From NCBI GenBank assembly GCA_017464225.1, contig JAFUDW010000107.1, positions 1-43,015 on the forward strand: a DNA stretch of 43,015 nt, in the 5' to 3' direction. A program made the translations under genes and the position numbers. The DNA is from Clostridia bacterium. Its GTDB lineage: Bacteria > Bacillota_A > Clostridia > Christensenellales > Aristaeellaceae. Of the stretch, positions 1 through 43,015 are shown piece by piece. The number at the start of each line of letters is the position of its first letter. Positions within the stretch are counted from its first letter, which is position 1. Under the pieces are notes generated by a model, which saw only the letters and a program-made list of their open reading frames with translations, did not search any database and had not been told where the DNA came from.

Positions 1-290
1 GATTGGAGCAAGCTCCATCTGTCGTCCCTTGCCTTTTTCGGGATTGCTGCGCAATCCTCAGCCCGCTTCTCGTGACGACCTCAGACTGCTGCTTGTAATC
101 AATGTTCAAATACTGCGTAACCCGCACCGGAAATGACGGCGTATTTCCGGTGCGCTCTTTGCGACAAGCCAAAACCATTCTGGCGGAAACAACAAATATA
201 GTTGTCTTCAACTTCCATCGCCAGCTAAAGTTCTTTGCGCAGCTTTCTTTCAAGAAAGCGCGTATCCCTCCCCAACTCTCTAACACAAGC
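1..290 (+). repeat. Intergenic hairpin repeat, copy 1 (5' part outside window)
   Basis: This gene-free stretch is the right part of a repeat also present at 26889-27470 and 36494-37124. Visible parts are the GGAG-CAAG-CTCC hairpin (5-16), the arm GCCTTTTTC (31-39), the hairpin GGATTGC-tgc-GCAATCC (41-57), the closing arm CCTCAGAC (79-86), a perfect 12-bp hairpin (123-134 with 143-154, loop gacggcgt) and the hairpin GCTTTCTT-tc-AAGAAAGC (242-259). In this copy the 12-bp hairpin is short; in the other two copies a block of about 100 bases with further hairpins sits in its loop. The stop codon of the minus-strand gene at 294 follows directly. No protein is credible here. Confidence 0.85.
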
Positions 291-293
291 AAA

Positions 294-24924: not shown

Positions 24925-26881
24925 AAAGAAAAAGCAAGCCCCCGTTCAGCCTGTCATGACCGGGGGAGGCCCCCGCGGGCCCCGGGCCATGGGCCCGCGA
25001 CAGCCCATCAATAAGGAAAGCGCTCTGCGGCTGCTGGGGTATTTGAAGCCCTATTGGCCCCGGCTTTTGGTGGTGCTGGCCTGTATCCTGCTCAACGCCA
25101 TTGCCACCGCTTCCGCGGCTACCTTCCTGGGCCGCATCATTGACGATTACATCACGCCGCTGCTGTCGGCCGCCGTCAAGGATTACAGCGGTCTGCTCAG
25201 CGCCATCCTGCGCATGGCCGCGCTGTACGTCCTCGCCATTGTCGCCACCTTTACCCAGGCGCGCATCATGGCCGTGATCTCCCAAAGCGTGCTCCGCAAG
25301 GTGCGCGACGAGATGTTCGCGCATATGCAGACGCTCCCCATCCGGTATTTTGATACGCATACCCATGGCGAGGTCATGAGCCATTATACCAATGATACCG
25401 ATACCCTGCGCCAGATGGTGAGCCAGGTGCTGCCCCAGAGCGTTTCCTCGGCCATCACGCTGCTGGTGGTGTTCATTTCCATGCTGAACTGCAGCGTATG
25501 GCTTACGCTGATCATTATCGTCAGCACCTTCTTTATGATCAAGGTATCGGCCAAGCTGGGCGGCGGCAGCGCCAAATACTTTGTCAAGCAGCAGAGCTCC
25601 CTGGCCAGCCTTAACGGCTATATTGAGGAAATGATCAACGGCCAGAAGGTGGTCAAGGTGTTCAACCATGAGCCCGCCGCGAAGCTGGAGTTTGACCGCC
25701 GCAACGACGAGCTGTGCGAAAACGCCACCGAAGCCAACAAGCTGGCCAATATCCTGGGCCCGGTGAGCAACAATATGGGTCATATCCAGTACGTGGTGCT
25801 GGCCATCATCGGCGGCGCCCTGGCCATCGGCGGGGTCGCCAATCTGAGCCTTTCGGGCATGGGCACGCTGACGCTGGGCAATATCGCCGCCTTCCTGACC
25901 CTGTCCCGCAATTTCATGCAGCCCATCAGCCAGATGACCCAGCAGATCAACTTTATCGCCATGGCCCTGGCCGGCGCCGACCGCATATTCAAGCTGATGG
26001 ATGAGGAGAAGGAAGCAGATGCGGGCTATGTGCATCTGGTGCGCGCCCGGGAGGAGAACGGGCAACTGGTGGAGTGTGCCGAGCGCACCGGCACCTGGGC
26101 CTGGAAACATCCGCATTCAGCCGACGGCAGCGTTACCTATACGCGCATGCAGGGCGATGTGGTGATGGAGCATGTGGATTTTGCCTATGATCCCGAAAAG
26201 CCCGTGCTGCACGATATTTCGCTCTACGCCAAGCCCGGCCAGAAGGTGGCCTTTGTGGGCGCCACCGGCGCGGGCAAAACCACCATCACCAACCTGATCA
26301 ACCGCTTCTACGATATCGCCGACGGCAAAATACGCTATGACGGCATCAATATCAATAAGATCTGCAAGCCCGATCTTCGCCATTCCCTGGGCGTGGTGCT
26401 CCAGGATGTCAATCTGTTCACCGGCACGGTGATGGATAACATCCGCTACGGCAAGCTGGACGCCACCGACGAGGAATGCATCGCCGCCGCCAAGCTGGCT
26501 AACGCCCATGATTTTATTACCCGCCTGCCCGACGGCTACAATACCGAGCTCAAGGGCGACGGCAGCGGGCTCAGCCAGGGCCAGCGGCAGCTGATCTCCA
26601 TCGCTCGCGCCGCTGTGGCCGACCCGCCGGTCATGATCCTGGACGAGGCCACCTCCTCCATCGATACCCGTACCGAGGCGCTGGTGGCCCGGGGCATGGA
26701 TCAGCTGATGCGGGGGCGCACGGTGTTCGTTATCGCCCATCGACTGTCCACCGTGCAGAACAGCGACGTTATCATGGTGCTGGATCACGGCCGCATCATC
26801 GAGCGCGGCACCCACGACCAGCTGATCGCCCAGAAAGGACAGTATTATCAGCTGTACACCGGCGCTTTTGAACTGGAGTGA
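24917..26881 (+). CDS. ABC exporter half-transporter, canonical NBD
   Basis: The 654-residue partner subunit has a Gly/Pro/Arg-rich N-terminal tail of about 35 residues, six helices, and an NBD with Walker A GATGAGKT (about 448), signature LSQGQRQ (about 553) and Walker B VMILDEATSS with the catalytic Glu. Between the transmembrane part and the NBD there is an extra stretch of about 40 residues (around 370-412, with ERTGTWAWKH) typical of some heterodimer partners. GGGAGG is eight bases before ATG 24917; the ATG at 24911 is too close to it. The stop is followed within a few bases by repeat copy 2. Confidence 0.93.
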   Translation: MSEKKKQAPVQPVMTGGGPRGPRAMGPRQPINKESALRLLGYLKPYWPRLLVVLACILLNAIATASAATFLGRIIDDYITPLLSAAVKDYSGLLSAILRMAALYVLAIVATFTQARIMAVISQSVLRKVRDEMFAHMQTLPIRYFDTHTHGEVMSHYTNDTDTLRQMVSQVLPQSVSSAITLLVVFISMLNCSVWLTLIIIVSTFFMIKVSAKLGGGSAKYFVKQQSSLASLNGYIEEMINGQKVVKVFNHEPAAKLEFDRRNDELCENATEANKLANILGPVSNNMGHIQYVVLAIIGGALAIGGVANLSLSGMGTLTLGNIAAFLTLSRNFMQPISQMTQQINFIAMALAGADRIFKLMDEEKEADAGYVHLVRAREENGQLVECAERTGTWAWKHPHSADGSVTYTRMQGDVVMEHVDFAYDPEKPVLHDISLYAKPGQKVAFVGATGAGKTTITNLINRFYDIADGKIRYDGININKICKPDLRHSLGVVLQDVNLFTGTVMDNIRYGKLDATDEECIAAAKLANAHDFITRLPDGYNTELKGDGSGLSQGQRQLISIARAAVADPPVMILDEATSSIDTRTEALVARGMDQLMRGRTVFVIAHRLSTVQNSDVIMVLDHGRIIERGTHDQLIAQKGQYYQLYTGAFELE

Positions 26882-27034
26882 CGGGGGAGGGGGAACGTTG
26901 GAGGCCTCCGCGGCCTCCAAACCTCTGCGCCAAAGGCCCGCTTGGGCCTCTGGACTCCATCCCGGCGAACAAAGTTGAATTTACTAACAAACGATTTCCG
27001 CCAGTTTAGCTTTTGGGTTGGCGTAAAGAGGACC

Positions 27035-27152
27035 GTCTGAGGCAAAGAAAAAGGCCAGTGCCGTCAGATTGGAGCAAGCTCCATCTGGCGTCTCTCGCCT
27101 TTTTCGGGATTGCTGCGCAATCCTCGGCCCGCTTCGCGTGCCTACCTCAGAC
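27035..27152 (+). other. Multibranched RNA-like fold within repeat copy 2
   Basis: The outer helix GTCTGAGG (27035-27042) with CCTCAGAC (27145-27152) encloses GAAAAAGGC (27047-27055) paired with GCCTTTTTC (27097-27105), which itself holds CAGAT-GGAG-caag-CTCC-ATCTG (27065-27087), and then GGATTGC-tgc-GCAATCC (27107-27123). The same fold can be drawn in copy 3 (36637-36754) and partly in copy 1. Whether it is transcribed is not known. Confidence 0.6.
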
Positions 27153-27247
27153 TGGGTTTCGGATTAAAGTTTTCAACGTATTATTTCGCACCGGAAATGA
27201 CGGCGGCTTGCCGACGTCAATGACGCGACAGCGTCATAGCCGCATAA

Positions 27248-27291
27248 GCAAAACGGCTGGATCGAGCTTGCTCGAATCCAGTCGTTTTTGT
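27248..27291. terminator. Terminator-like hairpin in repeat copy 2
   Basis: The arms GCAAAACG, CTGGAT and GAGC pair with GCTC, ATCCAG and CGTTTTTGT around a TT centre. A-tract and T-tract are part of the stem, so it could stop transcripts from either of the convergent genes. The matching hairpin in copy 3 (36849-36894) has different bases in the same pairs. Confidence 0.65.
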
Positions 27292-27470
27292 GTTGCGGTG
27301 TATTTCCGGAGCGCTCTTTGCGCCAATCCAAAACTATTCTGGCGGAGACAAAAAACATTACCGCGCTAACTTTTATCGCCAGCTAAAGTTCTTTGCACAG
27401 CTTTCTTTCAAGAAAGCGCGTACTCTTTCCAACTCCACAGAAAATCCGCCGGCATTCACGCCGATCTTCA

Positions 27471-29027
27471 TTACTCCCGCACAATGCTGCCGTTCTTCAT
27501 GAATTCGCCCGGCAGGTACAGCCCGCCTGAAAGCGTTTCGGGCTGCGCGCCCGCGATAAACAGGCTCACGCTGCGTACGGCGGGCAGCTCGCACAAGGTA
27601 TTAACGATGGCGTATATCAGCAGGCGTTCAGCCTCAGCGTCCAGATTTGAGGCTGCCGCCGCGAAATGCTGGGAGAAATTGAGCAGCATCACATTGCCAT
27701 CCAGCCCAACGCCCAAAAGGTCTGCGTCGCCCAGGTCCTCGGGCAGAACGGCATGCGATTCGTACGCGCCGTCCACCGCCTGGGGCCCCTGCATCAGGCA
27801 GCCAAGCAGGTACCGGGCGGAGCGGGTCTCGTAGTAGGGGATGGGGCGCTGCACGGCGGTCAGGTGGCCGCTGCCGTCGCTGAAATACAGCGCGCAGTTG
27901 GCCAGCAGAAAACGCGAAAAATCGCTGCGGCGCATGATATCGCCTGAAAAGCGGATGGTTTCTCCCGCGCCGTCGTATACGCCGCCCGGCACCACGCTGG
28001 ATACCAGCTCTTCGCCGATATACACCGTAATGCCGTTGATGCCCGGCACAAAGCCTGTAATGGTATAGGTAATGGCCGCCAGCATCACGGAACGGGGAAT
28101 GCCCGCGCCGATCAGCGCGTCGTTAAAGCCCTGCTGGAAGCGCAGCACGGCCCGCTGGCCGCCGGTGACGGCGATCTCCTGCACGGCAGGCGCTTCGCTC
28201 AAATAGCCCGTCAGGTCGGGCATGGCGGGCACGTTGCTCAGCTGCTGAGGCGCCTGGCTCATGGCCTCCAGCAGCGTTTCGATCAGCTGCGGCTTGAGGC
28301 GGCTGCCAAAGCTGACGCTCTGGGTCTCGGCCAGGATGCCACGGCCCGAATAGGTGGGATAGTACAGCGTGGCCGCCAGGCTGAAGCGCCGATCGGCCGC
28401 GGCTGCGGTCTGCGTTTCGGCGGCTGCGGTCAGGGCGTCTATGCTGTCGTTCAGGTTCTGGGTAAAGCAGCCCATGGGCACGCTGGCGCCCACGTCCAGA
28501 CCGGGCTGGGTGGAGCTGACCAGCACGTTCACATACCGGATGTCGCCCCATTGGGTCAGCGTGTTCGCGATGGCCTGGCAGACAACGTAAAAATCGGCGT
28601 GGCTCAGCGTCAGCGCTGAAGCGCCCAGGTTCACGGTGGCCGTGCCGCCCGATATCTCCACGGGATTCACCGGGGACAATTGCAGATTCACATCCTGGCA
28701 GAGCCGCTGCGCGCTGTCCGAGCCCGGAAAGGCAAACAGCTGGCGCAGCGTGGCTTCGGCCGGATGCCGGGCGGCGGAGATCACGATGCGTTCGGTCTGT
28801 GCCGTAAGCCGCGTGCCCGCGGCGTTGGGTACGTACAGGAGCACGGTCTGGGCGATTTCCTGGTTGGTGTCGCCGGTGGGCGCGGCGTGCGCGGCCGCCG
28901 CCGGCGGCAGGGTCACAGCGTCCTTGTGGCTCAAAGCGTCAATGCCGCCCACGCAGCCCGTGAGCGTCAGGGCGGCCAGGACACACAGCGCCGCGCAGAA
29001 CAGGCGGCGCAATAAAAGCTTATTCAT
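27471..29027 (-). CDS. GerMN-domain lipoprotein, tandem domains
   Basis: The 518-residue protein has a lipoprotein signal with lipobox LTGC (Cys25), a first GerMN domain at about 55-180 (VLLYVPNAAGTRL ... VNVLVSSTQPGLDVG) and a second near the C-terminus at about 375-505 (CALYFSDGSGHLTAVQR ... SLFIAGAQPETL). GerMN domains occur in spore-germination protein GerM and in LpqB-like lipoproteins of the cell surface. Its start overlaps the preceding GerMN gene by 8 bases. The role may be in envelope or spore-cortex biology, but no sporulation gene is nearby to decide. The middle 200 residues are unassigned. Confidence 0.82.
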   Translation of the reverse strand: MNKLLLRRLFCAALCVLAALTLTGCVGGIDALSHKDAVTLPPAAAAHAAPTGDTNQEIAQTVLLYVPNAAGTRLTAQTERIVISAARHPAEATLRQLFAFPGSDSAQRLCQDVNLQLSPVNPVEISGGTATVNLGASALTLSHADFYVVCQAIANTLTQWGDIRYVNVLVSSTQPGLDVGASVPMGCFTQNLNDSIDALTAAAETQTAAAADRRFSLAATLYYPTYSGRGILAETQSVSFGSRLKPQLIETLLEAMSQAPQQLSNVPAMPDLTGYLSEAPAVQEIAVTGGQRAVLRFQQGFNDALIGAGIPRSVMLAAITYTITGFVPGINGITVYIGEELVSSVVPGGVYDGAGETIRFSGDIMRRSDFSRFLLANCALYFSDGSGHLTAVQRPIPYYETRSARYLLGCLMQGPQAVDGAYESHAVLPEDLGDADLLGVGLDGNVMLLNFSQHFAAAASNLDAEAERLLIYAIVNTLCELPAVRSVSLFIAGAQPETLSGGLYLPGEFMKNGSIVRE

Positions 29028-29952
29028 TCTTTTCTCCCATGATATTGAGCAGCTGCGAGCGCAGGATCTTCCATGCTCCGCCTTCGCTGACCAGCCGCAG
29101 AGGGCAGGCGTCCATCATCGTTTCGGCGCCGTCGCGGTCCCGGAGCACCAGATCGGCGCATACCACGGCGCTGCCGCCGTCAGGCGATACCGTGCCGTCG
29201 TAAACGGCAAAGGAGAGCAGCGCGTCTGCGGCGGCCAGATCGCCGCTGAGAGCGCTCTGCGTCCATTCCTCCCGGGATGAAACGAAGGCCGACAGCGCCT
29301 CCGGGTCCTGACGCTGCCAGGCCGTCAGCAGCGCGACGGCATAGGCCGAGGGCGTAGGCAGGCTGGCGCTCCGCCGGAGCAGGGGCGGCACGGCCTCCTC
29401 CTCTTCTTCGCGGAAAAAGCGCGTGGTCAGCCGCATGCTGCGGCCCACGTTTTCCTCGGCCCGCACCAGCACCTGCACGCTGCGGTATTCGCCGCTCTCG
29501 GTCAGCGTGGCGGTCAGCGCGTCCAGGGCCAGCTGCCTGCGCTGGAGCGTATCCCCATCGGCGTAACGGTCGTAGAGCGATTCATTGAAGGTGATGTAGA
29601 TCACGCTGTCCTGGGCCTGGGTGGATAGCACTTCGGTCTTTTCGGGAAAGAGCGGGCGGCTGCCCGCGTCCCGGGAGCCCTCCAGCAGGGCGCGCACCAG
29701 CGCTTTCTCCCGGGTCTCGTTGGGCAGGAGCGTGATCTGTCGGCTCTCCTGGCGGAGTAGGCCGGTATCGCCGTAGCCAAAGTACAGCGTGTCGGTGGCC
29801 TGCCGGGCGGCGCTGGATACCGGCACGGCGTCGATGATCACCGCGCTGTCGGCGCTGTCCTTGATCAGCCCTTCGGGCGGCTGCTGGCGGCATCCGCCCA
29901 GCAGCGGCATAAAGATCAGCAGCGCGGCCAGGATCATATATTTTCTTTTCAT
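29020..29952 (-). CDS. GerMN-domain lipoprotein
   Basis: The 310-residue protein starts MKRKYMILAALLIF with lipobox LGGC (Cys21) and one GerMN domain at about 55-175 (DTLYFGYGDTGLLRQESRQI ... YRSVQVLVRAEENVG). A C-terminal part of about 120 residues resembles the NTF2-like tail that follows GerMN in some lipoproteins (ALLTAWQRQDPEALSAFV). The ATG at 29952 overlaps the stop of the DUF6062 gene by 4 bases and is preferred over a start ten codons earlier inside that gene. It and the next gene form a coupled pair of related surface lipoproteins, likely arising by duplication. Confidence 0.8.
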   Translation of the reverse strand: MKRKYMILAALLIFMPLLGGCRQQPPEGLIKDSADSAVIIDAVPVSSAARQATDTLYFGYGDTGLLRQESRQITLLPNETREKALVRALLEGSRDAGSRPLFPEKTEVLSTQAQDSVIYITFNESLYDRYADGDTLQRRQLALDALTATLTESGEYRSVQVLVRAEENVGRSMRLTTRFFREEEEEAVPPLLRRSASLPTPSAYAVALLTAWQRQDPEALSAFVSSREEWTQSALSGDLAAADALLSFAVYDGTVSPDGGSAVVCADLVLRDRDGAETMMDACPLRLVSEGGAWKILRSQLLNIMGEKNE

Positions 29953-30719
29953 TTCTTTTCGTCGGGCTCGGCGCCCAGGCACCAGGAGCGCAGCTTCAAC
30001 ACCGCCCTGTCCAGGGCGTTGCGGCTGTTGTTCCAGGGCTTATCGGCGTTGCGGTAGTCAAATTTCAGCGTGAACCACTCCAGCTCGTCCTCCACCCGCT
30101 TCATGTTGCCAGCGGTGAGCTTTTGGAGAGCGGCGGCAAATTCCGACTGCTCCTTTCCCCGCAGGGCCTCCGCGCCCATGCGCAGCAGCAGAGCGGCGTC
30201 CTTCAGGCATACGCCCTTGCTGCTTTCAAAAGCCTGCCGGAAGGCGGCGTCGTGGGTGAACAGGTGCAGCAGCGTATAGGCATAGCGGTTCATATTGTCG
30301 GCAATGCTGTCGCACAGGATGCAGGTACCGGTCAGCGCGTCCAGCGCGTCGGCGGCGGCCGTAAGGGCATCCTGCCCGCCCCGCCCCATGGCGCGCTTCA
30401 TGAAGGAGGCCTCCTTGCCCTGGGCGCCCTGCGCCGCGGCCTCCAGGATCTTATCGGCGGCCTGCCGGGTTTCCCGCATGTGGGTGTGGGTCATCAGCGC
30501 GTGGCCCAGCCTGTTCTGCTGGGCGTATAAAAGGATATGATGGCGCTGGCAGAAGCCCTTGGCATTGACGCGCACGCGGGTATCGGGCTCCATCACCGAG
30601 CCGCCCAGAAACCGATCCACCTCGCCGCGCTCCACCTGGCGGCGCAGGGCGCAGAACGGGCACTCGCTTTCAAGCTTGACCGCGTCCCAGACCGGAATGG
30701 TATCGATGTGATAACGCAT
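29949..30719 (-). CDS. DUF6062 family cysteine-rich protein
   Basis: The 256-residue cytosolic protein begins MRYHIDTIPVWDAVK and has paired cysteines suited to metal binding: CPFC at 20-23, FCQRHH at about 56-61 and CILC at about 137-140, with helical segments between. These features match DUF6062, a Clostridia family of unknown function. GGAGG stands before the ATG. It leads a three-gene coupled operon with two GerMN lipoproteins, which hints at a shared envelope-related role. I cannot name a reaction. Confidence 0.75.
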   Translation of the reverse strand: MRYHIDTIPVWDAVKLESECPFCALRRQVERGEVDRFLGGSVMEPDTRVRVNAKGFCQRHHILLYAQQNRLGHALMTHTHMRETRQAADKILEAAAQGAQGKEASFMKRAMGRGGQDALTAAADALDALTGTCILCDSIADNMNRYAYTLLHLFTHDAAFRQAFESSKGVCLKDAALLLRMGAEALRGKEQSEFAAALQKLTAGNMKRVEDELEWFTLKFDYRNADKPWNNSRNALDRAVLKLRSWCLGAEPDEKK

Positions 30720-30745
30720 ACGCGCCTCCGAGAATCATTTTGTCA

Positions 30746-30774
30746 ATTGTACCATAAATGCGCGGGCCGCGCAA
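30746..30774 (-). promoter_or_regulatory. Promoter of the DUF6062-GerMN operon
   Basis: On the minus strand TTGCGC (30774-30769) and TACAAT (30751-30746) are 17 bases apart; the -35 box is weak. Confidence 0.5.
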
Positions 30775-30791
30775 TCGCGGGGCGCGGCGCT

Positions 30792-31871
30792 TTAAATCAT
30801 GCCCACCTGTCCGCAGAAGATGGGGGCCGTGCTCCTGAACACCGGGACCACCGAAAACTGATCGGCCATATCGTTCTGCCCGTTTCCGGCGATCTTGGCC
30901 ACCAGCATGTGCACCGCGATGTACGCGTGCTTGGTGGGGTATTGGTAAACCGAAGCCGTCAGCACGCCGCTGGAAAAAAACGGAAGCAGCTCGGGAAAAG
31001 CGTCGGTGCCGATCAGCGTGGGATATTTTTCAAGCCCGGCCTCGGATACCGCCTGGCAGGCTGTCAGCGTTTCGCGGGCCGATACGGCGTAGAGGCCCAC
31101 GATATCGTCAAACCTGCGCAGACAATCGATGATGAAGGCCTTGAGCCGAGGCAGGTCGTGGTAATAGTGCGTTTCCAGGATATTGACCTCCGGACATTGC
31201 CGGCTCACGCGCTGGGAAAAATCCGATGTACGCGCCATTTGCAGCTGGTTTTTGCGGTCGCCGCCCAGCAGCAGCATGCTGCCCCGGGAAGCGCTGTGCA
31301 CGGCGGAAAAGATATCCGCGCCCAGCTGCCCGATCTGGTGATTGGCCCGGATGGCGTACAGCATGGGATGGACGGAGGCGGGATCAAAAAGCGCGTTGAT
31401 GATGAAAACCGGGATGCCTTTGCCCAGAAAGCCGTTCAGCAGCGCGTTGATGCGCTCATCCTGCCGGGCGACGGTGATCAGCCCCTGGATGGGGGATTGC
31501 TCCCGGTTCAGCAGTTCTTCCAACGCCGATATCTGCTCCTGGGTGCCCGGCTCGGCGCAGCAGCGCACCAGATCGATCTGGTAAATGGACAGATCCCTGC
31601 ACGCGCGGTCGATCCCCTGCCAGATATAGGAGAAAAAATAGCTGTTTTTTCCCTCGGGCGCGGGCAGCACCACGCCCAGCGTGATGGGCGCGCGGCGCAG
31701 GGCGGAGGCGGCGGTATTGGCCGAATAGCCGATGCGCTGGGCCTCCTCCAACACCAGCTTTTGCGTTTCCGGGCTGTAGCCGCCCTTGCCGTGCAGCGCC
31801 CGCTGCACGGTGCCGATGGACAGGCCCAGGTTTTCGGCGATGGTTTTCAGCTTGGGAGCGGATGAAGCCAT
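30792..31871 (-). CDS. LacI family transcriptional regulator of the TRAP/sulfatase locus
   Basis: The 359-residue protein has an N-terminal LacI helix-turn-helix (LKTIAENLGLSIGTVQRALHGKGGYSPETQKLV, about 8-40), hinge SANTAASALRR, and a periplasmic-binding-protein-like effector domain beginning TLGVVLPAPEGKNSYF. The ATG at 31871 follows GGAG; an earlier TTG is rejected. It is divergent from dctP, and two identical perfect palindromes (31948-31961 and 32071-32084) lie between them. The first is close to its own promoter, so autoregulation is likely. The inducer is probably the TRAP substrate or a product of the sulfatase. Confidence 0.93.
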   Translation of the reverse strand: MASSAPKLKTIAENLGLSIGTVQRALHGKGGYSPETQKLVLEEAQRIGYSANTAASALRRAPITLGVVLPAPEGKNSYFFSYIWQGIDRACRDLSIYQIDLVRCCAEPGTQEQISALEELLNREQSPIQGLITVARQDERINALLNGFLGKGIPVFIINALFDPASVHPMLYAIRANHQIGQLGADIFSAVHSASRGSMLLLGGDRKNQLQMARTSDFSQRVSRQCPEVNILETHYYHDLPRLKAFIIDCLRRFDDIVGLYAVSARETLTACQAVSEAGLEKYPTLIGTDAFPELLPFFSSGVLTASVYQYPTKHAYIAVHMLVAKIAGNGQNDMADQFSVVPVFRSTAPIFCGQVGMI

Positions 31872-31899
31872 GGAGTCAACTCCGATCAAAGTTTTTTCT

Positions 31900-31929
31900 A
31901 TTATACAACAAAGAACGAAGGGCTGGCAA
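31900..31929 (-). promoter_or_regulatory. Promoter of the LacI-type regulator gene
   Basis: On the minus strand TTGCCA (31929-31924) and TATAAT (31905-31900) are 18 bases apart. Confidence 0.7.
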
Positions 31930-31947
31930 CAAGAAACGAATAGAAAA

Positions 31948-31961
31948 AAATAACGTTATTT
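31948..31961. promoter_or_regulatory. LacI-type operator O2
   Basis: AAATAACGTTATTT is a perfect 14-base palindrome with the central CG typical of LacI-family sites. It lies 18 bases upstream of the regulator's -35 box and 123 bases (centre to centre) from the identical operator O1. Confidence 0.85.
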
Positions 31962-32065
31962 CCATACAGCCCATTTTATGAAGCGAAATTTTGAGATGCC
32001 AGCGCTATAAGATGGGAAAATTTGCGCAATACGGTAAAATTTTAAAAATAAATTGAAATTCTCTA

Positions 32066-32094
32066 TTGACAAATAACGTTATTTCTTTTACAAT
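32066..32094 (+). promoter_or_regulatory. Promoter of the TRAP/sulfatase operon
   Basis: TTGACA (32066-32071) and TACAAT (32089-32094) are 17 bases apart. The spacer is almost filled by operator O1, so a bound repressor would block RNA polymerase directly. Confidence 0.9.
32071..32084. promoter_or_regulatory. LacI-type operator O1
   Basis: This second copy of the perfect palindrome AAATAACGTTATTT starts on the last base of the -35 box and fills most of the -35/-10 spacer of the dctP promoter. Confidence 0.88.
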
Positions 32095-32171
32095 GGTGGC
32101 AAATGAGGGGGACGGCCGCCCCTTCGCCCATGAAACGACGTAGGAACCGATGATTTGAAAGGAGCATTTCC

Positions 32172-33158
32172 ATGAAAAAATTTGCTGCCGCGCTGCTTGC
32201 CGCCATCCTGTGCCTGTCCCTGTGCGCCGGCGCTTTTGCCGAAGACAGCTATACCTTTAAGATCGCCCTGCAGAACGGCGAGACCCATCCGCTGTGCATG
32301 GGCGTAGCCAAGTTTGGCGAGATCCTTTCCGAAAAGACCAACGGCCGCCTGAGCCTGGATATCTATTACAGCGGCTCGCTGGGCGATAAGGCCACCACGG
32401 CCCAGGGCATGCAGACCGGCACCATCGACGGCGGCATGCTGATGAGCGGCGTTATTGCCGATTACGGCTGCGACGACCTGCGCGTATTCATCCTGCCTTA
32501 CCTGTTTGATAACGTGGCCCATGCCCGCGCCTTTGAAAACAGCGAGGCCGGCAAGGCGCTGTTTGATTCCGTGCAGGCCTCCGACACCGGTATCGTGTGC
32601 ATCGGCGCTTATCAGGAATCCGCCCGTAACTACTTCTTCACCAAGAAGGCCGTAAAGAGCCCCGCCGATATGAAGAACATGCAGATCCGCTGCCAGGAAG
32701 GCTCCGTGTACTATGACGCCGTGGAAGCCCTGGGCGCGTACGCGCAGGCTGTGGCCTTCTCCGAGCTCTATTCCGCCCTGCAGGCCGGCGTGGTGGACGG
32801 CGCTGAGCAGCCCCTGTCCGGCTTTGTGAACAACGCCTTCCCCGAAGTGGCCAAGTATTACGTACTGGACGGCCATGAGATCAGCCCCAACCTGATCCTG
32901 TTCTCCGAGATCACCTGGAACAAGCTGAGCGAGGCCGATCAGGCCATCATTCTGGAAGCCTTCAACGAGTCCGTGCCCTATTTTGAGGAGTTGTCCGACA
33001 GCAAGGACGCCGAGTATCTGCAGCAGATCAAGGACGCCGGCGTGGAAGTCATCGAAGTGAACGTGGCCGAGTGGCAGGAAGCCTGCTCCAGCGTATACGA
33101 TAAGTATGGCAAGGAGTTTGCCGATGTGATCGAGGCCATCAAAGCCACCCAGTACTGA
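32172..33158 (+). CDS. dctP: TRAP transporter substrate-binding protein (DctP type)
   Basis: The 328-residue protein has a signal peptide cleaved near AFA-ED (residue 24) and the DctP fold: FKIALQNGETHPLCMG, then MKNMQIRCQEG with the Arg that normally anchors a substrate carboxylate (about residue 176), then GVVDGAEQPLSGFVNN. It captures an organic acid outside the membrane for the DctQM permease. Lacking a second membrane, it is presumably held at the surface by its partner. Cysteines occur in the mature part but no lipobox. GAAAGGAG precedes the ATG. A terminator-like hairpin after the gene probably gives it extra mRNA relative to dctQM. Confidence 0.93.
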   Translation: MKKFAAALLAAILCLSLCAGAFAEDSYTFKIALQNGETHPLCMGVAKFGEILSEKTNGRLSLDIYYSGSLGDKATTAQGMQTGTIDGGMLMSGVIADYGCDDLRVFILPYLFDNVAHARAFENSEAGKALFDSVQASDTGIVCIGAYQESARNYFFTKKAVKSPADMKNMQIRCQEGSVYYDAVEALGAYAQAVAFSELYSALQAGVVDGAEQPLSGFVNNAFPEVAKYYVLDGHEISPNLILFSEITWNKLSEADQAIILEAFNESVPYFEELSDSKDAEYLQQIKDAGVEVIEVNVAEWQEACSSVYDKYGKEFADVIEAIKATQY

Positions 33159-33182
33159 TTGAAAAGGACGAACAATGCCCTC

Positions 33183-33218
33183 AGGGGGAAGGAGCGCATC
33201 CCTCCCCCTTTCTTTTTT
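33183..33218 (+). terminator. Partial terminator between dctP and dctQ
   Basis: AGGGGGA (33183-33189) pairs with TCCCCCT (33203-33209), with GG/CC inside, followed by TTCTTTTTT. It sits inside the operon and likely lowers dctQM-sulfatase transcription relative to the binding protein. Confidence 0.7.
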
Positions 33219-33235
33219 ACGCAGGAGTGAGAAGA

Positions 33236-33745
33236 ATGAGCCAGAATAAACCGGAGGAAGCGCCCCGGAAAAGCGTGCTGGACGCCGTGATCGACTGGAT
33301 TTCCCGGATCATGATTTTGATCTGCGTGTTGTTTTTCACCGTGATGGTGTTTTCGGTTTCCTACGGCGTGATCGGGCGCTACGTGCCCTTTATCCGCAAT
33401 CCCCGCTGGACGCAGGAGCTTGCCATCCTATGCATGGTCTGGCTGTGCTTCGTATCGGCCGGCTATGCCATTAAAAACGGGCTGCATGTGCGCATGACCA
33501 TCCTGACCGGCCTAATGCCGCAGAAGGTGCAGGCCGTGATCACCCGCCTGACCTATGTGCTGCTGCTGGCGGTGAACGTATTCTTTGTGGTGTACGGGCT
33601 CAAGCTCATGCACCTGACCCGCCGCGCGCGCATGAGCGCCACCGGCTGGCCCATGAAGATCACCTATCTTTCGGTGGTGGTGGGCGGCGTATACGGCGCC
33701 AGCATGGCGCTGTACCGCGTGATCAAAGGAGGCAACGGCAAATGA
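33236..33745 (+). CDS. dctQ: TRAP transporter small permease (DctQ type)
   Basis: The 169-residue protein has four helices and the DctQ landmarks VFSVSYGVIGRYVPF, then WTQELAILCMVWLCFVSAGYAIKNGLHVRM at about 60-90. It couples the binding protein to the large permease. AGGAG is eight bases before the ATG at 33236. The stop overlaps the dctM start by 4 bases. Confidence 0.92.
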   Translation: MSQNKPEEAPRKSVLDAVIDWISRIMILICVLFFTVMVFSVSYGVIGRYVPFIRNPRWTQELAILCMVWLCFVSAGYAIKNGLHVRMTILTGLMPQKVQAVITRLTYVLLLAVNVFFVVYGLKLMHLTRRARMSATGWPMKITYLSVVVGGVYGASMALYRVIKGGNGK

Positions 33746-35034
33746 ATATAACGGCTATTATCCTGCTGCTGGGGCTGTTTTTTCTGATCATCCTGCTCAG
33801 CGGCCATATTTCCTACGCCATGATCGCCTCCTCGGCGGTGACCATCCTGTACCTGGGCCTTTCGCCCACCCAAGTGATCAATACGCTGGTGGACGGCATT
33901 GACGGCTTCACCTTCCTGGCCATTCCCTTTTTCATCCTGGCGGGCGATCTGATGTCCCATGGCGGCATCAGCGACCGGCTGATCCTGCTGGCCAACGCCT
34001 GCGTGGGCTGGATGCGGGGCGGCCTGGCCATGGTGAACATTGTGGCGTCCATCTTCTTCGGCGGCATTTCGGGCTCGGCCACCGCCGATACCGCGTCCCT
34101 GGGCGCAATCCTGATCCCCATGATGCACAAGCAGGGCTATGACGACGAGTTTTCCGCCGCCGTCACCATGACCAGCTCGGTACAGGGCATGCTGATCCCG
34201 CCCAGCCATAACATGATCATCTACGCCATGGCGGCGGGCGGGCTTTCGGTAAGCGCGCTGTTCATGGCCGGCATCGTGCCCGGATTATTGCTGGGCCTGG
34301 CGCTGATGATTTTCAGCTATTACCTGTCGGTCAAACGGCATTATCCCAAGGGCGAGCCCTTCTCACTGCGCAATCTGTGGAGCGCCGTCAAAAAGTCCAT
34401 CTGGGGCCTTGGCACCGTGCTGATCGTCGTTGTGGGCGTGGTGTTCGGCGTGTTCACCGCCACCGAGTCCGCCGCCATCGCCTGCCTGTACGCTCTGATT
34501 GTCTCCATGCTGGTGTACAGGGAGCTGACGCCCCGGAACCTGTATCCCGTGCTGAAAAGCAGCATCAAAACGCTGTCTACCGTGCTGATCCTGATCGCGG
34601 CCTCCGGCCCCTTCGGCTTCTGCATTACCTATTTAAAGATCCCGGCCCTGGTGGTGGATCTGCTGCTGGGCCTGACCGAAAGCAAATTCCTGCTGCTCCT
34701 GCTGATCAATCTGATCATCCTGCTGTTGGGCATGATCCTGGGCATGGCTTCCATCATCGTGATCGTTACGCCCATCCTGCTGCCCATTCTGCTGAACATC
34801 GGCCTGAGCCCCATTCAGTTTGGCGTTATGCTGATCCTTAATTGCGGCATCGGCCTGATCACCCCGCCGGTGGGCGGCGTGCTGTTCATCGGCAGCGGCC
34901 TGACGGGCAAGTCCATAGAGCAGCTGACCCGGCATACATTCCCCTTCCTCATTGTCATGTTTGTTGTGCTGATGCTGATCACCTATGTTCCCGGCTTCTC
35001 GCTGGCGCTGCCCCGGGCGCTGGGGCTGTTGTAA
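33742..35034 (+). CDS. dctM: TRAP transporter large permease (DctM type)
   Basis: The 430-residue membrane protein has about twelve helices and the DctM motifs FLAIPFFILAGDLMSHGGIS, FFGGISGSATADTASLGAILIP, and LIPPSHNMIIYA, which line the Na+ and substrate sites. It imports the substrate delivered by DctP using the sodium gradient. It is coupled to dctQ by a 4-base overlap, and the sulfatase gene follows after 9 bases. The substrate class is inferred as a carboxylate. Confidence 0.94.
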   Translation: MNITAIILLLGLFFLIILLSGHISYAMIASSAVTILYLGLSPTQVINTLVDGIDGFTFLAIPFFILAGDLMSHGGISDRLILLANACVGWMRGGLAMVNIVASIFFGGISGSATADTASLGAILIPMMHKQGYDDEFSAAVTMTSSVQGMLIPPSHNMIIYAMAAGGLSVSALFMAGIVPGLLLGLALMIFSYYLSVKRHYPKGEPFSLRNLWSAVKKSIWGLGTVLIVVVGVVFGVFTATESAAIACLYALIVSMLVYRELTPRNLYPVLKSSIKTLSTVLILIAASGPFGFCITYLKIPALVVDLLLGLTESKFLLLLLINLIILLLGMILGMASIIVIVTPILLPILLNIGLSPIQFGVMLILNCGIGLITPPVGGVLFIGSGLTGKSIEQLTRHTFPFLIVMFVVLMLITYVPGFSLALPRALGLL

Positions 35035-35043
35035 GGAGCTTCC

Positions 35044-36492
35044 ATGAATAGAAAAAACGTGTTGATGATTTCCACCGATCATTGGTTCGCGCCGCTGATG
35101 GGCTGCGCGGGCCATCCGGTGGTGATGACCCCCACGCTGGATCAATTGGCTGCCGACGGCATCCGCTTTACCAACTGCTTCAGCACCTGCCCGGTGTGCA
35201 TTCCCGCCCGCCGCAGCCTGATGACCGGCATGAGCCCGGCCAGCCATGGCGACCGGGTGTATTCCGATCGGATGCCCATGCCGGACGTGACCACCCTGGC
35301 CCAGGCATTTCGGAACGCCGGATATCAGACTTATGCCGTGGGCAAGCTGCACGTCTATCCCCAGCGCAGCCGCATCGGCTTTGACGATGTGGTGCTCATG
35401 GAGGAGGGACGCTATGACTTTGGCGTGGTGGACGATTATCAGATCTGGCTGGGTGAAAACGGCTATACCGGTCAGGAATTCCTGCACGCCATGGGCAACA
35501 ACAGCTATTTGACCCGGCCCTGGCACTTGCCCGAGGAGGCGCACCCCACCAGCTGGGCCACCTATCAGATGATGCGGCAAATCAAGCGCAGGGATCCCAC
35601 CCGGCCCGCGTTCTTCTATATGTCCTATCAGTTCCCGCATCCGCCGCTGGTGCCCCTGCAGACCTTCCTGGACTTCTATGACGACGCCGAAATCGATATG
35701 CCCGAGGATATCGACGACTGGCAGGGCAATGAAACCATCCTGCAATTGCTGAAGGAACAGGCCATGCCTTACTCCGAAAAGGAGATACGCCGGGCCCGGA
35801 AAGCCTTCTACGCGCTGTGCACGCACATCGATTATGAGATCCGCAACCTGATCGGCACGCTGCGGGAGAGCAGCATGCTGAAGGACACCGTCATTGTGTT
35901 CCTCAGCGATCATGGCGATACGCTGTTCGATCACGGCATCTGCGGAAAGCGCACCTTCTACCAGGGCTCAACCAATATCCCGCTGCTCCTGTCCGGCGAG
36001 CCCGTGAAGCAGTGGCGCGGCCAGGTGACTGATCGGATCGCCTGCCTGGAGGATGTGATGCCCACGCTGCTCAGCCTGTGCGGCATCGATATCCCCGATA
36101 CCGTGGAGGGAATCGATCTGCTGCATGACAGCCGGGATATGCTCTACGGCGAGATCGGCGAAGGTCGCAAGGCCACAAGAATGGCCACCGACGGCCGGTA
36201 CAAGCTGATCTATTATCCTTGCGGAAACGTGCGTCAACTGTTCGATATCAAAAACGATCCCGGGGAGCATCATGATCTGAGCGGAAAAGCGGAGTACGCA
36301 GACGTGCAGCGGAAGCTGACCGATTACATGGTGGCGCACCTGCACGGCGCCGATCTGGAATGGCTCAAGGATGGGCAGCTCTGCGGCTTTGATGCGGGCA
36401 CCTTCTCCCGCGCCCCGGATTACGAGCTGTACAACCAGCGCGGGCTGCATTGGCCCACGCCCAGCGGTTACGCCAACTGCGGCAAGACCTGA
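35044..36492 (+). CDS. Cytoplasmic type I sulfatase (FGly-dependent)
   Basis: The 482-residue protein begins NVLMISTDHWFAP, the sulfatase metal-binding strand, and has the formylglycine signature C52-I-P-A-R56 within TCPVCIPARRSLMTGM. LSDHGDTLFDHG at about 288-299 gives further metal ligands, and ATDGRYKLIYY is typical of the C-terminal domain. It should hydrolyse a sulfate ester, or less likely a phosphonate monoester, after Cys52 is converted to formylglycine; no maturase (anSME) gene is in the window. There is no signal peptide, so the substrate must be imported, presumably by the TRAP system of the same operon. AAGGAGC precedes the ATG. Confidence 0.9.
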   Translation: MNRKNVLMISTDHWFAPLMGCAGHPVVMTPTLDQLAADGIRFTNCFSTCPVCIPARRSLMTGMSPASHGDRVYSDRMPMPDVTTLAQAFRNAGYQTYAVGKLHVYPQRSRIGFDDVVLMEEGRYDFGVVDDYQIWLGENGYTGQEFLHAMGNNSYLTRPWHLPEEAHPTSWATYQMMRQIKRRDPTRPAFFYMSYQFPHPPLVPLQTFLDFYDDAEIDMPEDIDDWQGNETILQLLKEQAMPYSEKEIRRARKAFYALCTHIDYEIRNLIGTLRESSMLKDTVIVFLSDHGDTLFDHGICGKRTFYQGSTNIPLLLSGEPVKQWRGQVTDRIACLEDVMPTLLSLCGIDIPDTVEGIDLLHDSRDMLYGEIGEGRKATRMATDGRYKLIYYPCGNVRQLFDIKNDPGEHHDLSGKAEYADVQRKLTDYMVAHLHGADLEWLKDGQLCGFDAGTFSRAPDYELYNQRGLHWPTPSGYANCGKT

Positions 36493-36636
36493 CGGGAACG
36501 TTGGAGGCCTCCGCGGCCTCCAAACCTCTGCGCCAAAGGCCCGCTTGGGCCTCTGGACTCCATCCTGGCGAACAGTCTTGATGACACTATCAAGCAATTT
36601 CCGCCAGTATAGCATATGGGTTGGCGTAAAGAGGCC

Positions 36637-36754
36637 GTCTGAGGCAAGGAAAAAGGCCAGTGCCGACAGATTGGAGCAAGCTCCATCTGCCGTCCCTTGC
36701 CTTTTTCGGGATTGCTACGCAATCCTCGGCCCGCTGCGCGTACCGACCTCAGAC
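36637..36754 (+). other. Multibranched RNA-like fold within repeat copy 3
   Basis: GTCTGAGG (36637-36644) pairs with CCTCAGAC (36747-36754) and encloses GAAAAAGGC/GCCTTTTTC, the CAGAT-GGAG-caag-CTCC-ATCTG hairpin and GGATTGC-tac-GCAATCC, in the same order as in copy 2; differences fall mainly in loops and joining bases. Confidence 0.6.
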
Positions 36755-36848
36755 TATGGTTTGCTATCAAAGTTTTACTTGCCTTACCTGCTCCAGAAAT
36801 GACGTCGGCTTGCCGACGTCAATGACGCGTTAGCAGCATAGCGATCAT

Positions 36849-36894
36849 ACAGAAACGCCCAGACCGAGCTTGCTCGAGTCTGGGTTGTTTCTGT
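36849..36894. terminator. Terminator-like hairpin in repeat copy 3
   Basis: ACAGAAAC, CCCAGAC and GAGC pair with GCTC, GTCTGGG and GTTTCTGT. The outer and middle helices differ from those of copy 2 while pairing is kept, so the structure rather than the sequence seems conserved. Confidence 0.65.
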
Positions 36895-37124
36895 TGATCG
36901 CGTATTTCAGGAGCGCTCTTTGCGCCAAGCCCTTCTCAATCAACTGCGGGAAATTGCTTGTTCACCGCGCTAAGCAGCATCCGCAACCGGCGGGTCCAGG
37001 GGCTTCGAGCGCCCGGAAAACCTTCCCTTGGGATGGTTTTCAGCGAGAAGCGGGCCGGAAGGCCCCGGACAGGCTCCCTCCCCAGCAGGGTTTTTAAGGG
37101 GCAGCGCCCCTTAACGTTCCCCCC

Positions 37125-39716: not shown

Positions 39717-39747
39717 CGGATACCTATAAGAAAAGGCTGGCTGTATT

Positions 39748-39915
39748 GAATAGCGCTCCATGGCCTGAACCATGACAGTCAAGCGGATGTTCTCCCCTTG
39801 CCCAACGCGACAGCCCTGCCGGCGCTCCCGCATTTCGGCGGCTTCCCCTTTCGCCCGCGATCTCAGCCCCGGCAGGGGCTCCCGCGCGCTACTCTTGTCG
39901 GCCGCGCCTCTATTC
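39748..39915 (-). ncRNA. Lysine riboswitch (L-box)
   Basis: On the minus strand the leader shows the conserved L-box blocks in order: GAATAGAGGCGCG (from 39915), AAGAGTA (39896-39890), GAAAGGGGA, GCCGAA (39839-39834), AGGGCTGTC (near 39817-39809), and CATGGAGCGCTATTC (to 39748), whose CTATTC closes P1 with GAATAG. These match the Bacillus lysC leader blocks that I recall. Length of about 168 bases fits. The 3' strand GCGCTATTC (39756-39748) can also pair with GAATGGCGC (39711-39703) with one G-U, giving an anti-terminator. Lysine binding should therefore turn the transporter operon off. Confidence 0.92.
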
Positions 39916-39944
39916 CATCCGGGTCATGCCCGAATGTTGGTGTG

Positions 39945-42787: not shown

Positions 42788-42802
42788 ATCATCATGAATA
42801 CG

Positions 42803-42840
42803 CAGCGCCGGAGGGACGATCGTTCCTTCGGCGCTGTTTT
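42803..42840 (+). terminator. Intrinsic terminator after the surface protein gene
   Basis: CAGCGCCG (42803-42810) pairs with CGGCGCTG (42829-42836) and the stem extends inward through AGGGA/TTCCT with wobble pairs, followed by TTTTC. A second perfect hairpin, GTTTTCATG/CATGAAAAC (42836-42864), follows directly. Confidence 0.8.
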
Positions 42841-42882
42841 CATGCTGAAAACATACATGAAAACAGACATTTGACGAGGAGA

Positions 42883-43015
42883 GGAATGTTAAGGGGCGCT
42901 GCCCCTTAAAAACCCTGCTGGGGTGCAAGTTGCACCCCAGACCCCGCCGGTTGCGGATGCAGCTTGCGTACTCTTTCCAGCAATTTCTCGCAGTTGATTA
43001 GAATGGCTTGACATA
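42883..43015 (-). repeat. Intergenic hairpin repeat, copy 4 (inverted, runs out of window)
   Basis: Read on the minus strand, this segment repeats the right module of copy 3: AATCAACTGCGAGAAATTGCT, then GCATCCGCAACCGGCGGG, then CAGCAGGGTTTTT and the hairpin TTAAGGGGC/GCCCCTTAA (42889-42909), ending in AACATTCC. Between them a perfect 10-bp hairpin CTGGGGTGCA/TGCACCCCAG (42918-42940) replaces the longer hairpin block of copy 3. The plus-strand string GCGTACTCTTTCCA is shared with copy 2, so modules are mixed. Confidence 0.88.

What the first reader, a model, noticed from the sequence alone, without database searches (positions are those of the whole stretch)
26889..37124. Modular hairpin-rich intergenic repeat family placed only between convergent genes
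Four copies (1-290, 26889-27470, 36494-37124, 42883-43015) share blocks in the same order but with some blocks added, lost or swapped. Both fully visible copies lie between the 3' ends of converging genes; the other two adjoin a gene's 3' end at the window edge. None lies in a divergent promoter region. The best copy fills the gap stop codon to stop codon and has inverted ends GGGAACGTT/AACGTTCCC. No transposase or protein is encoded. It could be a non-autonomous mobile element, a family of intergenic insulators or terminators, or a transcribed structured RNA. I do not recognise it as a named repeat.
Basis: partly seen in the sequence, partly recalled or inferred. Interest (0 to 1): 0.75.

Follow-up and report, generated by a model that had tools for sequence, protein, structure and literature searches.

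The report
Nested palindromic repeats between converging genes
In some gut bacteria many of the gaps where two genes run toward each other are filled with large, hairpin-within-hairpin DNA repeats that come in interchangeable pieces and may act as two-way stop signals for gene reading; this looks like a new variety of the known bacterial palindromic repeats.

Summary
The repeats are real and reach beyond the window. Copies 2 and 3 fill gaps between converging genes; copies 1 and 4 are partial, and copy 4 is inverted and shares blocks with copy 3. One named assembly (Clostridiales RUG12722, here G001) has 53 matches; 5 of 11 genomes of its genus match copy 2. In stretches of three genomes, 65 classifiable clusters lie 47 between converging, 17 between co-directional and 1 between diverging genes. 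'Only convergent' is nearly, not strictly, right.

Whatever their sequence, long convergent gaps in G001 are rich in nested hairpins (24 of 28, against 3 of 34 divergent). The elements are mosaics with exchangeable ends and cores, and an independent, family-wide palindrome (R) sits inside some of their hairpins. Stems covary strongly, but in pairs predicted from both strands G-U and A-C are equally rare (22 vs 20; riboswitch control 48 vs 15). That argues against a one-strand RNA gene.

Best reading: non-autonomous nested-palindrome mosaics that gather at gene ends and supply two-way terminators. Mobility and termination are inferred, not shown. The RAYT transposase gene that marks REP/BIME repeats was not found in three of four repeat-rich genomes. 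No named family was found to fit.

The parts
26891..27470 (+). Copy 2 of the element, in the 26882-27470 gap between the ABC exporter gene (24845-26881 +) and the Germane-domain gene (27471-29027 -)
   Evidence: MFE z -11.8
26891..26970 (+). End module L of copy 2: GGGAACGTT, hairpin 1 (GGAGGCC-TCCGC-GGCCTCC) and hairpin 2 (AGGCCC-GCTT-GGGCCT)
   Evidence: 59 L copies listed; 57 examined
27026..27323 (+). Core of copy 2: domain A (CCGTCTGAGG...CCTCAGAC) and domain B (CACCGGAAATGACG...TATTTCCGGAG)
   Evidence: alignment A1
27047..27105 (.). Hairpin with AAAAA at one foot and TTTTT at the other: two-way terminator-like
27249..27290 (.). Second hairpin with A-rich and T-rich feet: two-way terminator-like
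27368..27425 (+). Right-end block of copy 2, shared with copy 1 and like the type-2 end seen at both ends of some G001 elements
   Evidence: D8; G001_C3, G001_C4
36494..37124 (+). Copy 3, filling the gap stop codon to stop codon
   Evidence: MFE z -12.1
36494..36573 (+). End module L of copy 3
36629..36925 (+). Core of copy 3 (domains A and B)
   Evidence: alignment A1
36649..36707 (.). Two-way terminator-like hairpin in domain A
36926..36994 (+). Block shared, inverted, with copy 4
36995..37083 (+). R element, an independent palindromic repeat found in other genomes of the bacterial family
37080..37121 (+). Terminal block of copy 3 ending AACGTTCCC, shared inverted with copy 4
1..293 (+). Copy 1, cut by the window edge: part of the core plus a type-2-like right end, next to the 3' end of gene 294-2273 (-)
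42883..43015 (-). Copy 4, cut by the window edge, inverted, sharing two blocks with copy 3; 95 nt past the 3' end of gene 40865-42787 (+)

Best explanation
The feature is a non-autonomous, palindromic, mosaic repeat family. Each element is a set of hairpins, often enclosed by inverted arms. It is assembled from exchangeable palindromic modules (end module L, core, R, a second end type), some lying inside the hairpins of others. The elements accumulate just past gene 3' ends, above all where two genes converge, and are nearly absent from divergent gaps. Because they usually lie where a terminator should be and carry hairpins with A-tract and T-tract feet, they most likely serve as the transcription stop of both neighbours, read from either side. 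Shown: dispersal, mosaic make-up, position, nested structure, covariation, strand symmetry of stems, turnover between two species. Inferred: transposition as the cause of dispersal, termination as the function, and template-switch repair or DNA-hairpin recognition as the reason stems stay near perfect.
For: Dispersal: 53 BLAST matches in G001; 5 of 11 genus genomes match copy 2, one of them with a single marginal match. Position: 47 convergent, 17 co-directional, 1 divergent of 65 classifiable clusters; 22 more could not be placed (21 at contig ends, 1 in a called ORF). By gap in 1.12 Mb of G001: 16 of 90 convergent, 8 of 766 co-directional, 0 of 94 divergent (Fisher convergent vs divergent 5e-6). 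Query-independent repeats within G001: 30 of 41 convergent gaps of at least 120 nt, 21 of 124 co-directional, 2 of 71 divergent. Structure: z below -4 in 24 of 28 convergent, 17 of 62 co-directional, 3 of 34 divergent gaps and 0 of 26 gene stretches. Mosaics; R inside hairpins of L and inside another hairpin elsewhere in the family. Turnover: four orthologous convergent gaps of G001 and G171 with the family on at least one side (flanking proteins 87-97% identical) differ in length and content. Termination: terminator-like sites on both strands in 19 of 20 repeat-bearing gaps, 9 of 20 after shuffling; first such site within 80 nt of the stop at 8 of 40 gene ends, against 78 of 112 in short convergent gaps. 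Covariation: 34 of 88 core pairs changed on both sides, reached in 0 of 500 shuffles.
Against: No transcript data. The scan tool, which allows only uninterrupted stems, found 1 terminator-like site in copy 2 and 1 in copy 3, against 1.1 expected in each; only my looser scan finds an excess, shuffled sequence passes it in 9 of 20, and 13 of 38 divergent gaps of at least 150 nt pass it too. No clean target-site duplication, clean empty site or mobilising enzyme was found. Large hairpins could be tolerated at gene ends without any function. The formal test of R flank complementarity is weak: 6 of 35 beyond the 5% null. Most of the G001, G171 and G106 stretches were chosen because they hold matches; in stretches taken by contig number alone the numbers are small (6, 4, 0).
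Confidence: 0.55

Rival explanations
1. Passive junk: selfish palindromic repeats that insert anywhere and survive only where they break neither a gene nor a promoter, so they pile up between converging genes without doing anything.
For: Another repeat shares the niche: motif hits of the CATCCTGAGC palindrome in G171 are 23 convergent, 22 co-directional, 0 divergent, 5 in called ORFs, 8 at contig ends; in G001 6, 6, 1, 12 and 0. R is mostly co-directional (15 of 29 loci, three of them from this genus). In 16 of 17 co-directional clusters at least 88 nt are left before the next start codon; the exception is a 64-nt fragment at 19 nt. About half of the convergent gaps of G001 are shorter than 100 nt (43 of 87).
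Against: L modules that follow a gene end begin a median 47 nt past it and usually no nearer terminator-like site is left, so the element would have had to remove or bury the native terminator. Convergent gaps exceed co-directional gaps per gap by far (16 of 90 vs 8 of 766), though many co-directional gaps are short and probably inside operons. Stems are kept near perfect.
Confidence: 0.28
2. DNA-topology element: the hairpins extrude as cruciforms or single-strand hairpins between converging genes and absorb supercoiling or bind a protein.
For: Strand-symmetric stems: G-U 22, A-C 20 of 1767 cells. One core triloop reads T-N-C in 20 of 21 copies with all four bases at N, that is G-N-A on the other strand, a loop recalled to be unusually stable in DNA. 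REPs are often between convergent genes, where supercoiling is proposed to build up (PMC1525189, passages seen).
Against: No binding or supercoiling data. Co-directional copies lack that topology. Transcription from both sides would give the same symmetry.
Confidence: 0.1
3. A transcribed structured non-coding RNA family of about 500-600 nt with a trans function.
For: Many helices with compensatory changes and conserved loops. Pairs predicted from the plus strand alone do show more G-U than A-C (56 vs 20).
Against: That excess reverses when pairs are predicted from the minus strand (28 vs 63) and vanishes in the shared pairs (22 vs 20), unlike the riboswitch control (125 vs 15, 52 vs 42, 48 vs 15). 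No promoter-like site in copies 2 and 3. No Rfam match in them or in the relatives' elements examined. Different cores occur between the same ends in relatives. Orientation in co-directional gaps is mixed.
Confidence: 0.05

Closest known systems
REP / BIME palindromic repeats (RAYT-linked)
   Same: High-copy palindromes, mosaic units, mostly between convergent or co-directional genes (PMC3733652 and PMC1525189, passages seen); palindromes preserved by complementary changes (PMC2817692, passages seen).
   Different: The larger elements are nests of roughly 400-630 nt rather than 20-40 nt units; no GTAG or CGTC tag seen; no Y1 transposase found in three of four repeat-rich genomes; no G-T pairing excess in shared pairs, whereas PMC3733652 cites G-T pairing as a sign of RNA function.
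MITEs (miniature inverted-repeat elements)
   Same: Inverted ends, no coding capacity, similar size (size range recalled), dispersed copies, one element inside another.
   Different: No target-site duplication, parent transposon or clean empty site found; ends come in several types and cores are exchanged.
Intrinsic terminators, including hairpins formed by uptake sequences
   Same: Position at gene ends; hairpins with A-rich and T-rich feet readable from both sides. In E. coli, inverted repeats past stop codons are mostly parts of intrinsic terminators (PMC6060812, passages seen).
   Different: About ten times longer, repeated across the genome, nested; some convergent gaps of the same genome are only 22-49 nt, and one 40-nt gap holds an ordinary small hairpin with A and T tracts. 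The uptake-sequence case is known here only from a passage in PMC2267715 and a listing.
BOX, ERIC and Correia elements (recalled, not tested)
   Same: Modular or palindromic intergenic repeats.
   Different: No sequence comparison was made here; named from memory only.

Membership tests
REP / BIME | Cognate RAYT (Y1 transposase, PF01797) in the genome | tested here: not met
   0 hits in G001, G106, G012 (repeat-rich) and G084; 1 in repeat-rich G171 with no repeat in its 2.0 kb locus; 1 partial in G159, which has no match to copy 2. Completeness of these assemblies is not told, so absence is not absolute.
REP / BIME | GTAG or CGTC tag beside the palindrome | tested here: not met
   Read by eye in the 59 L copies: the sequence before hairpin 1 is usually ACGTT (a near miss to CGTC); no formal scan, and R and the core were not looked at for tags.
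REP / BIME | Located between convergent or co-directional genes, rarely divergent | tested here: met
   47, 17 and 1 of 65 classifiable clusters.
REP / BIME | 20-40 nt palindromic units, in alternating or tandem array | tested here: not met
   Nested elements in the ten examples folded; single hairpins of L are about that size.
MITE | Terminal inverted repeats | tested here: met
   Type-1 and type-2 arms; not every copy has matching arms (copy 2 does not).
MITE | Target-site duplication and clean empty sites | tested here: inconclusive
   Five orthologous pairs aligned; no clean empty site.
MITE | Parent transposon with the same ends | tested here: inconclusive
   No pair of inverted L modules enclosing a gene was seen by eye in the listed matches; one search's list is cut.
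Intrinsic terminator | GC-rich hairpin followed by a T tract, in transcript orientation | tested here: inconclusive
   Own scan: both strands in 19 of 20 repeat-bearing convergent gaps, 9 of 20 after shuffling. The stricter tool shows no excess.
Intrinsic terminator | Transcripts end there | not testable with these tools
   Needs Term-seq.
Structured non-coding RNA | Covarying stems with strand-specific G-U pairs | tested here: not met
   Covariation yes; G-U vs A-C in shared pairs 22 vs 20, riboswitch control 48 vs 15.

The most novel reading that the evidence does not exclude
These bacteria build their two-way transcription stops by nesting: independent palindromic mobile elements insert preferentially into the tips of existing terminator hairpins, so each insertion keeps the whole a hairpin. 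Stems are then kept perfect at the DNA level (template switching or single-strand hairpin recognition). The result is fast-turning, interchangeable compound terminators that define many convergent gene ends across the genome.
Probability: 0.25. Interest if true: 0.8.

Novelty: new variant of a known kind. Interest (0 to 1): 0.56.

Why it matters
If the reading holds, a large share of convergent gene ends in a group of Clostridia is set by mobile DNA, and terminators evolve by capture and exchange of palindromic modules rather than by point change. It offers a natural system for testing how near-perfect long hairpins persist, since stems change on both sides with very few half-way pairs. It may also help explain why assemblies of these genomes break at repeats.

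Tried and rejected
Structured RNA gene: rejected as the main reading for lack of strand asymmetry in shared pairs (vs 68) and of any Rfam match in the copies. RAYT-driven REP: searched, not met. Phage or plasmid origin: copy 3 has no match in 50,697 phage and 72,556 plasmid records, and two exact patterns are not in the viral contigs. R as a strict hairpin-tip inserter: the formal flank test is weak, 6 of 35. Empty site at the copy 2 locus: the ABC exporter was not found beside the Germane gene in any of 11 genus loci (loci read), so that locus tells nothing about an empty site. E. coli stretches were fetched as a yardstick but not analysed, so the structure survey has no outside control.

A first gene calling of G001 was strand-swapped and made the repeats look divergent; a check against homologous window proteins gave 32 opposite, 9 without a call, 0 agreeing. 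The caller was reseeded from the window's genes; then 40 of 41 agreed and 1 had no call, and 11 of 11, 15 of 15 and 18 of 18 in the other genomes. One search is discarded. The reseeded caller puts a shadow ORF into the window (gap rows), so window gap counts are taken. One search gave 16 convergent clusters in G106; the recount on one database gives 15, and the recount is used.

Papers: the searches listed no title or abstract start that describes this family; the library lacks most subscription journals. PMC8794818 was seen as abstract, opening and outline; PMC1525189, PMC2817692, PMC3733652, PMC6060812, PMC2267715 and PMC13155455 as passages; no paper was read whole.
Full report
What is in the window. 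Copies 2 (26891-27470) and 3 (36494-37124) match over 443 nt at 85% and each fills a gap between converging genes; copy 1 shares blocks with both; copy 4 is inverted and shares two blocks with copy 3. Copies 2 and 3 fold with z of -11.8 and -12.1 against dinucleotide shuffles (100 and 20 shuffles). The window has four fully visible convergent gaps (112, 39, 589 and 632 nt); two hold a copy. No phage or plasmid record matches copy 3.

Where else it occurs. An exact 21-nt core palindrome is found in one assembly of the 84,980-species collection, Clostridiales RUG12722 (five loci; that RUG means rumen is recalled), here G001. Copy 3 has 53 BLAST matches there. With copy 2, 5 of 11 genomes of that genus match: G001 54, G171 57, G106 42, G012 35, G144 1 at E 1e-3. 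In a 300-genome sample of the family, 101 match copy 3; the printed matches mostly cover only the block near positions 504-580, called R here (two candidates scored per genome and the list is cut). The nearest held genus member by one window protein is G084 (86% identity). It has no match to copy 2, two weak ones to the right part of copy 3, and none to any copy in the 145 kb read. Yet 5 of its 6 convergent gaps of at least 150 nt have z below -4, against 1 of 6 co-directional and 1 of 6 divergent. So sequence may change quickly while the kind of filling persists, on a small sample.

Position. Genes were called with a hexamer model seeded from the window, with strands checked against homologous proteins. 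Clusters of matches to the four window copies, counted on one database, as convergent / co-directional / divergent / contig end or ORF: G001 contigs mostly known to hold matches, 719 kb, 14/6/0/3; G001 taken by contig number, 400 kb, 4/2/0/1; G171 stretches chosen around matches, 12/3/0/9; G171 by number, 399 kb, 2/2/0/0; G106 chosen around matches, 15/4/1/9. Sum: 47/17/1 of 65 classifiable, with 22 left out (21 at contig ends, 1 in a called ORF); by distinct gaps 45/16/1. By number only: 6/4/0. The ORF case reads through an end module at its own 3' end and faces a minus-strand gene, so it too is a gene end. By intergenic length in 1.12 Mb of G001 one would expect about 18% convergent, 61% co-directional and 22% divergent. 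In 16 of 17 co-directional clusters at least 88 nt are left before the next start codon.

Not tied to the query. Comparing gaps of at least 120 nt with each other, 30 of 41 convergent gaps of G001 share sequence with another G001 gap, against 21 of 124 co-directional and 2 of 71 divergent; G171 gives 28 of 32, 24 of 61 and 1 of 44. Convergent gap lengths in G001 are bimodal: of 87, 43 are under 100 nt, 6 are 100-149, none is 150-199 and 38 are 200 nt or more. Folding gaps of at least 150 nt (first 600 nt, 10 shuffles each; the first 719 kb of G001) gives z below -4 in 24 of 28 convergent, 17 of 62 co-directional and 3 of 34 divergent gaps, and in 0 of 26 gene stretches. G171 gives 16 of 17, 9 of 19, 0 of 12 and G106 14 of 15, 7 of 13, 3 of 12, both from stretches chosen around matches.

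Anatomy. End module L has 59 listed copies over G001, G171, G106 and the window. Outside the window it is usually preceded by its own conserved stretch (ACAGAAATTGGCAAGG or a variant, read by eye). It holds two hairpins whose stems come in many complementary versions over conserved loops, mixed freely. 46 of 59 copies start past a gene 3' end, a median 47 nt after it; 13 of 59 face a gene 5' end instead. Larger elements have inverted arms of type 1 (L) or type 2 (ACGCGCTTTCT...) around a core with two domains; G106 has L ends around a different core (ten examples). The R element lies at the place of hairpin 1 of L (L015, L022, L101, L107, L168, L174, L241), inside hairpin 2 (L008, L038, L190; L199), and in other genomes of the family inside a GGGGGAAACC...GGTTTCCCCC-type hairpin (L041, L043, L046, L048, L049) (read by eye in 49 rows). 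A general test of flank complementarity is weaker: 6 of 35 below the 5% null. So a place inside hairpins is clear in these cases but is not a rule for R.

How the stems evolve. For 21 core copies, 88 consensus pairs are 97.4% paired; 34 pairs change on both sides, and 0 of 500 shuffles reach that. G-U vs A-C cells: pairs predicted from the plus strand 56 vs 20, from the minus strand 28 vs 63, pairs common to both (85) 22 vs 20 of 1767. The plus-strand excess comes mainly from two pairs at stem feet. The lysine riboswitch of the same bacterial family (31 sequences) gives 125 vs 15, 52 vs 42, and 48 vs 15 of 798 in common pairs; Fisher p for the common pairs is 0.019, with cells not independent. 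L hairpin 1 gives 2 vs 4 of 353. A one-strand RNA should show a G-U excess in the common pairs. Stems kept by DNA template switching, recognised as DNA hairpins, or read from both strands would not. Template switching has been proposed to create and fix perfect stems (PMC8794818, abstract).

Turnover. Ten orthologous convergent gap pairs of G001 and G171 were found. Four hold the family on at least one side (flanking proteins 87-97% identical): 527 vs 174 nt, 519 vs 258, 450 vs 185, 367 vs 634. In the first, G171 keeps a reduced copy; in the other three the contents are largely different. Three pairs are short in both (22/25, 29/32, 48/49). The rest are 40 vs 180, 229 vs 310 (one flank only 50% identical) and 40 vs 647 with an extra gene. 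In the 40 vs 180 pair an A-tract/T-tract hairpin of G001 corresponds to a palindromic stretch in G171 between similar A and T tracts. No clean empty site with a target duplication was found.

Termination. My scan for stem-loops followed by T tracts finds them on both strands in 19 of 20 repeat-bearing convergent gaps (9 of 20 after shuffling), 21 of 24 other structured ones (9), 27 of 38 remaining long ones (10), 30 of 56 short ones (0) and 13 of 38 divergent gaps of at least 150 nt (8). In repeat-bearing gaps the first such site lies within 80 nt of the stop at 8 of 40 gene ends; in short gaps at 78 of 112. So most genes next to an element have no nearer terminator-like site than those inside it. 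The stricter scan tool, which needs unbroken stems, shows no excess. This supports, but does not prove, that the element is the terminator.

Place among known things. In location and in palindromic, mosaic make-up these resemble REP/BIME repeats, which also favour convergent and co-directional gaps (PMC3733652, PMC1525189, passages seen). They fail the RAYT and tag tests and differ in size and nesting. They resemble MITEs in ends and lack of genes, but duplication and parent element are unproven. I therefore call them a new variant of bacterial palindromic mosaic repeats, with a likely role as two-way terminators.

Noticed in passing
39743-39920 (-): Lysine riboswitch (Rfam RF00168, 105 bits), upstream of minus-strand transporter genes; its family served as the RNA control.
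   Followed up: partly
G171 loci, e.g. L257:7535-7715, L256:17154-17412: A different palindromic repeat (GATCCTTCG...CATCCTGAGC) shares the niche: motif hits in G171 are 23 convergent, 22 co-directional, 0 divergent, 5 in called ORFs, 8 at contig ends.
   Followed up: partly
G001 C4:8400-9419: An end module is read in frame as the C-terminal part of a called ORF; a gene end may have been rewritten by the element.
   Followed up: no
G106 L181:1878-1997: The single divergent placement among 65 classified clusters; genes on both sides score well, so it may be a true exception or an assembly join.
   Followed up: no
G001, G171, G106 contigs: 21 of 87 match clusters lie between a contig end and the nearest called gene: the repeats may break assemblies, so copy numbers are probably underestimated.
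   Followed up: no
alignment A1, columns 92-94: One triloop of the core is T-N-C in 20 of 21 copies with all four bases at N, which is G-N-A on the other strand, a loop recalled as very stable in DNA; a second triloop (columns 111-113) is T-N-C in 18 of 21.
   Followed up: no
42789-42848: An imperfect palindrome of about 60 nt right after the stop of 40865-42787, before copy 4; possibly that gene's own terminator.
   Followed up: no
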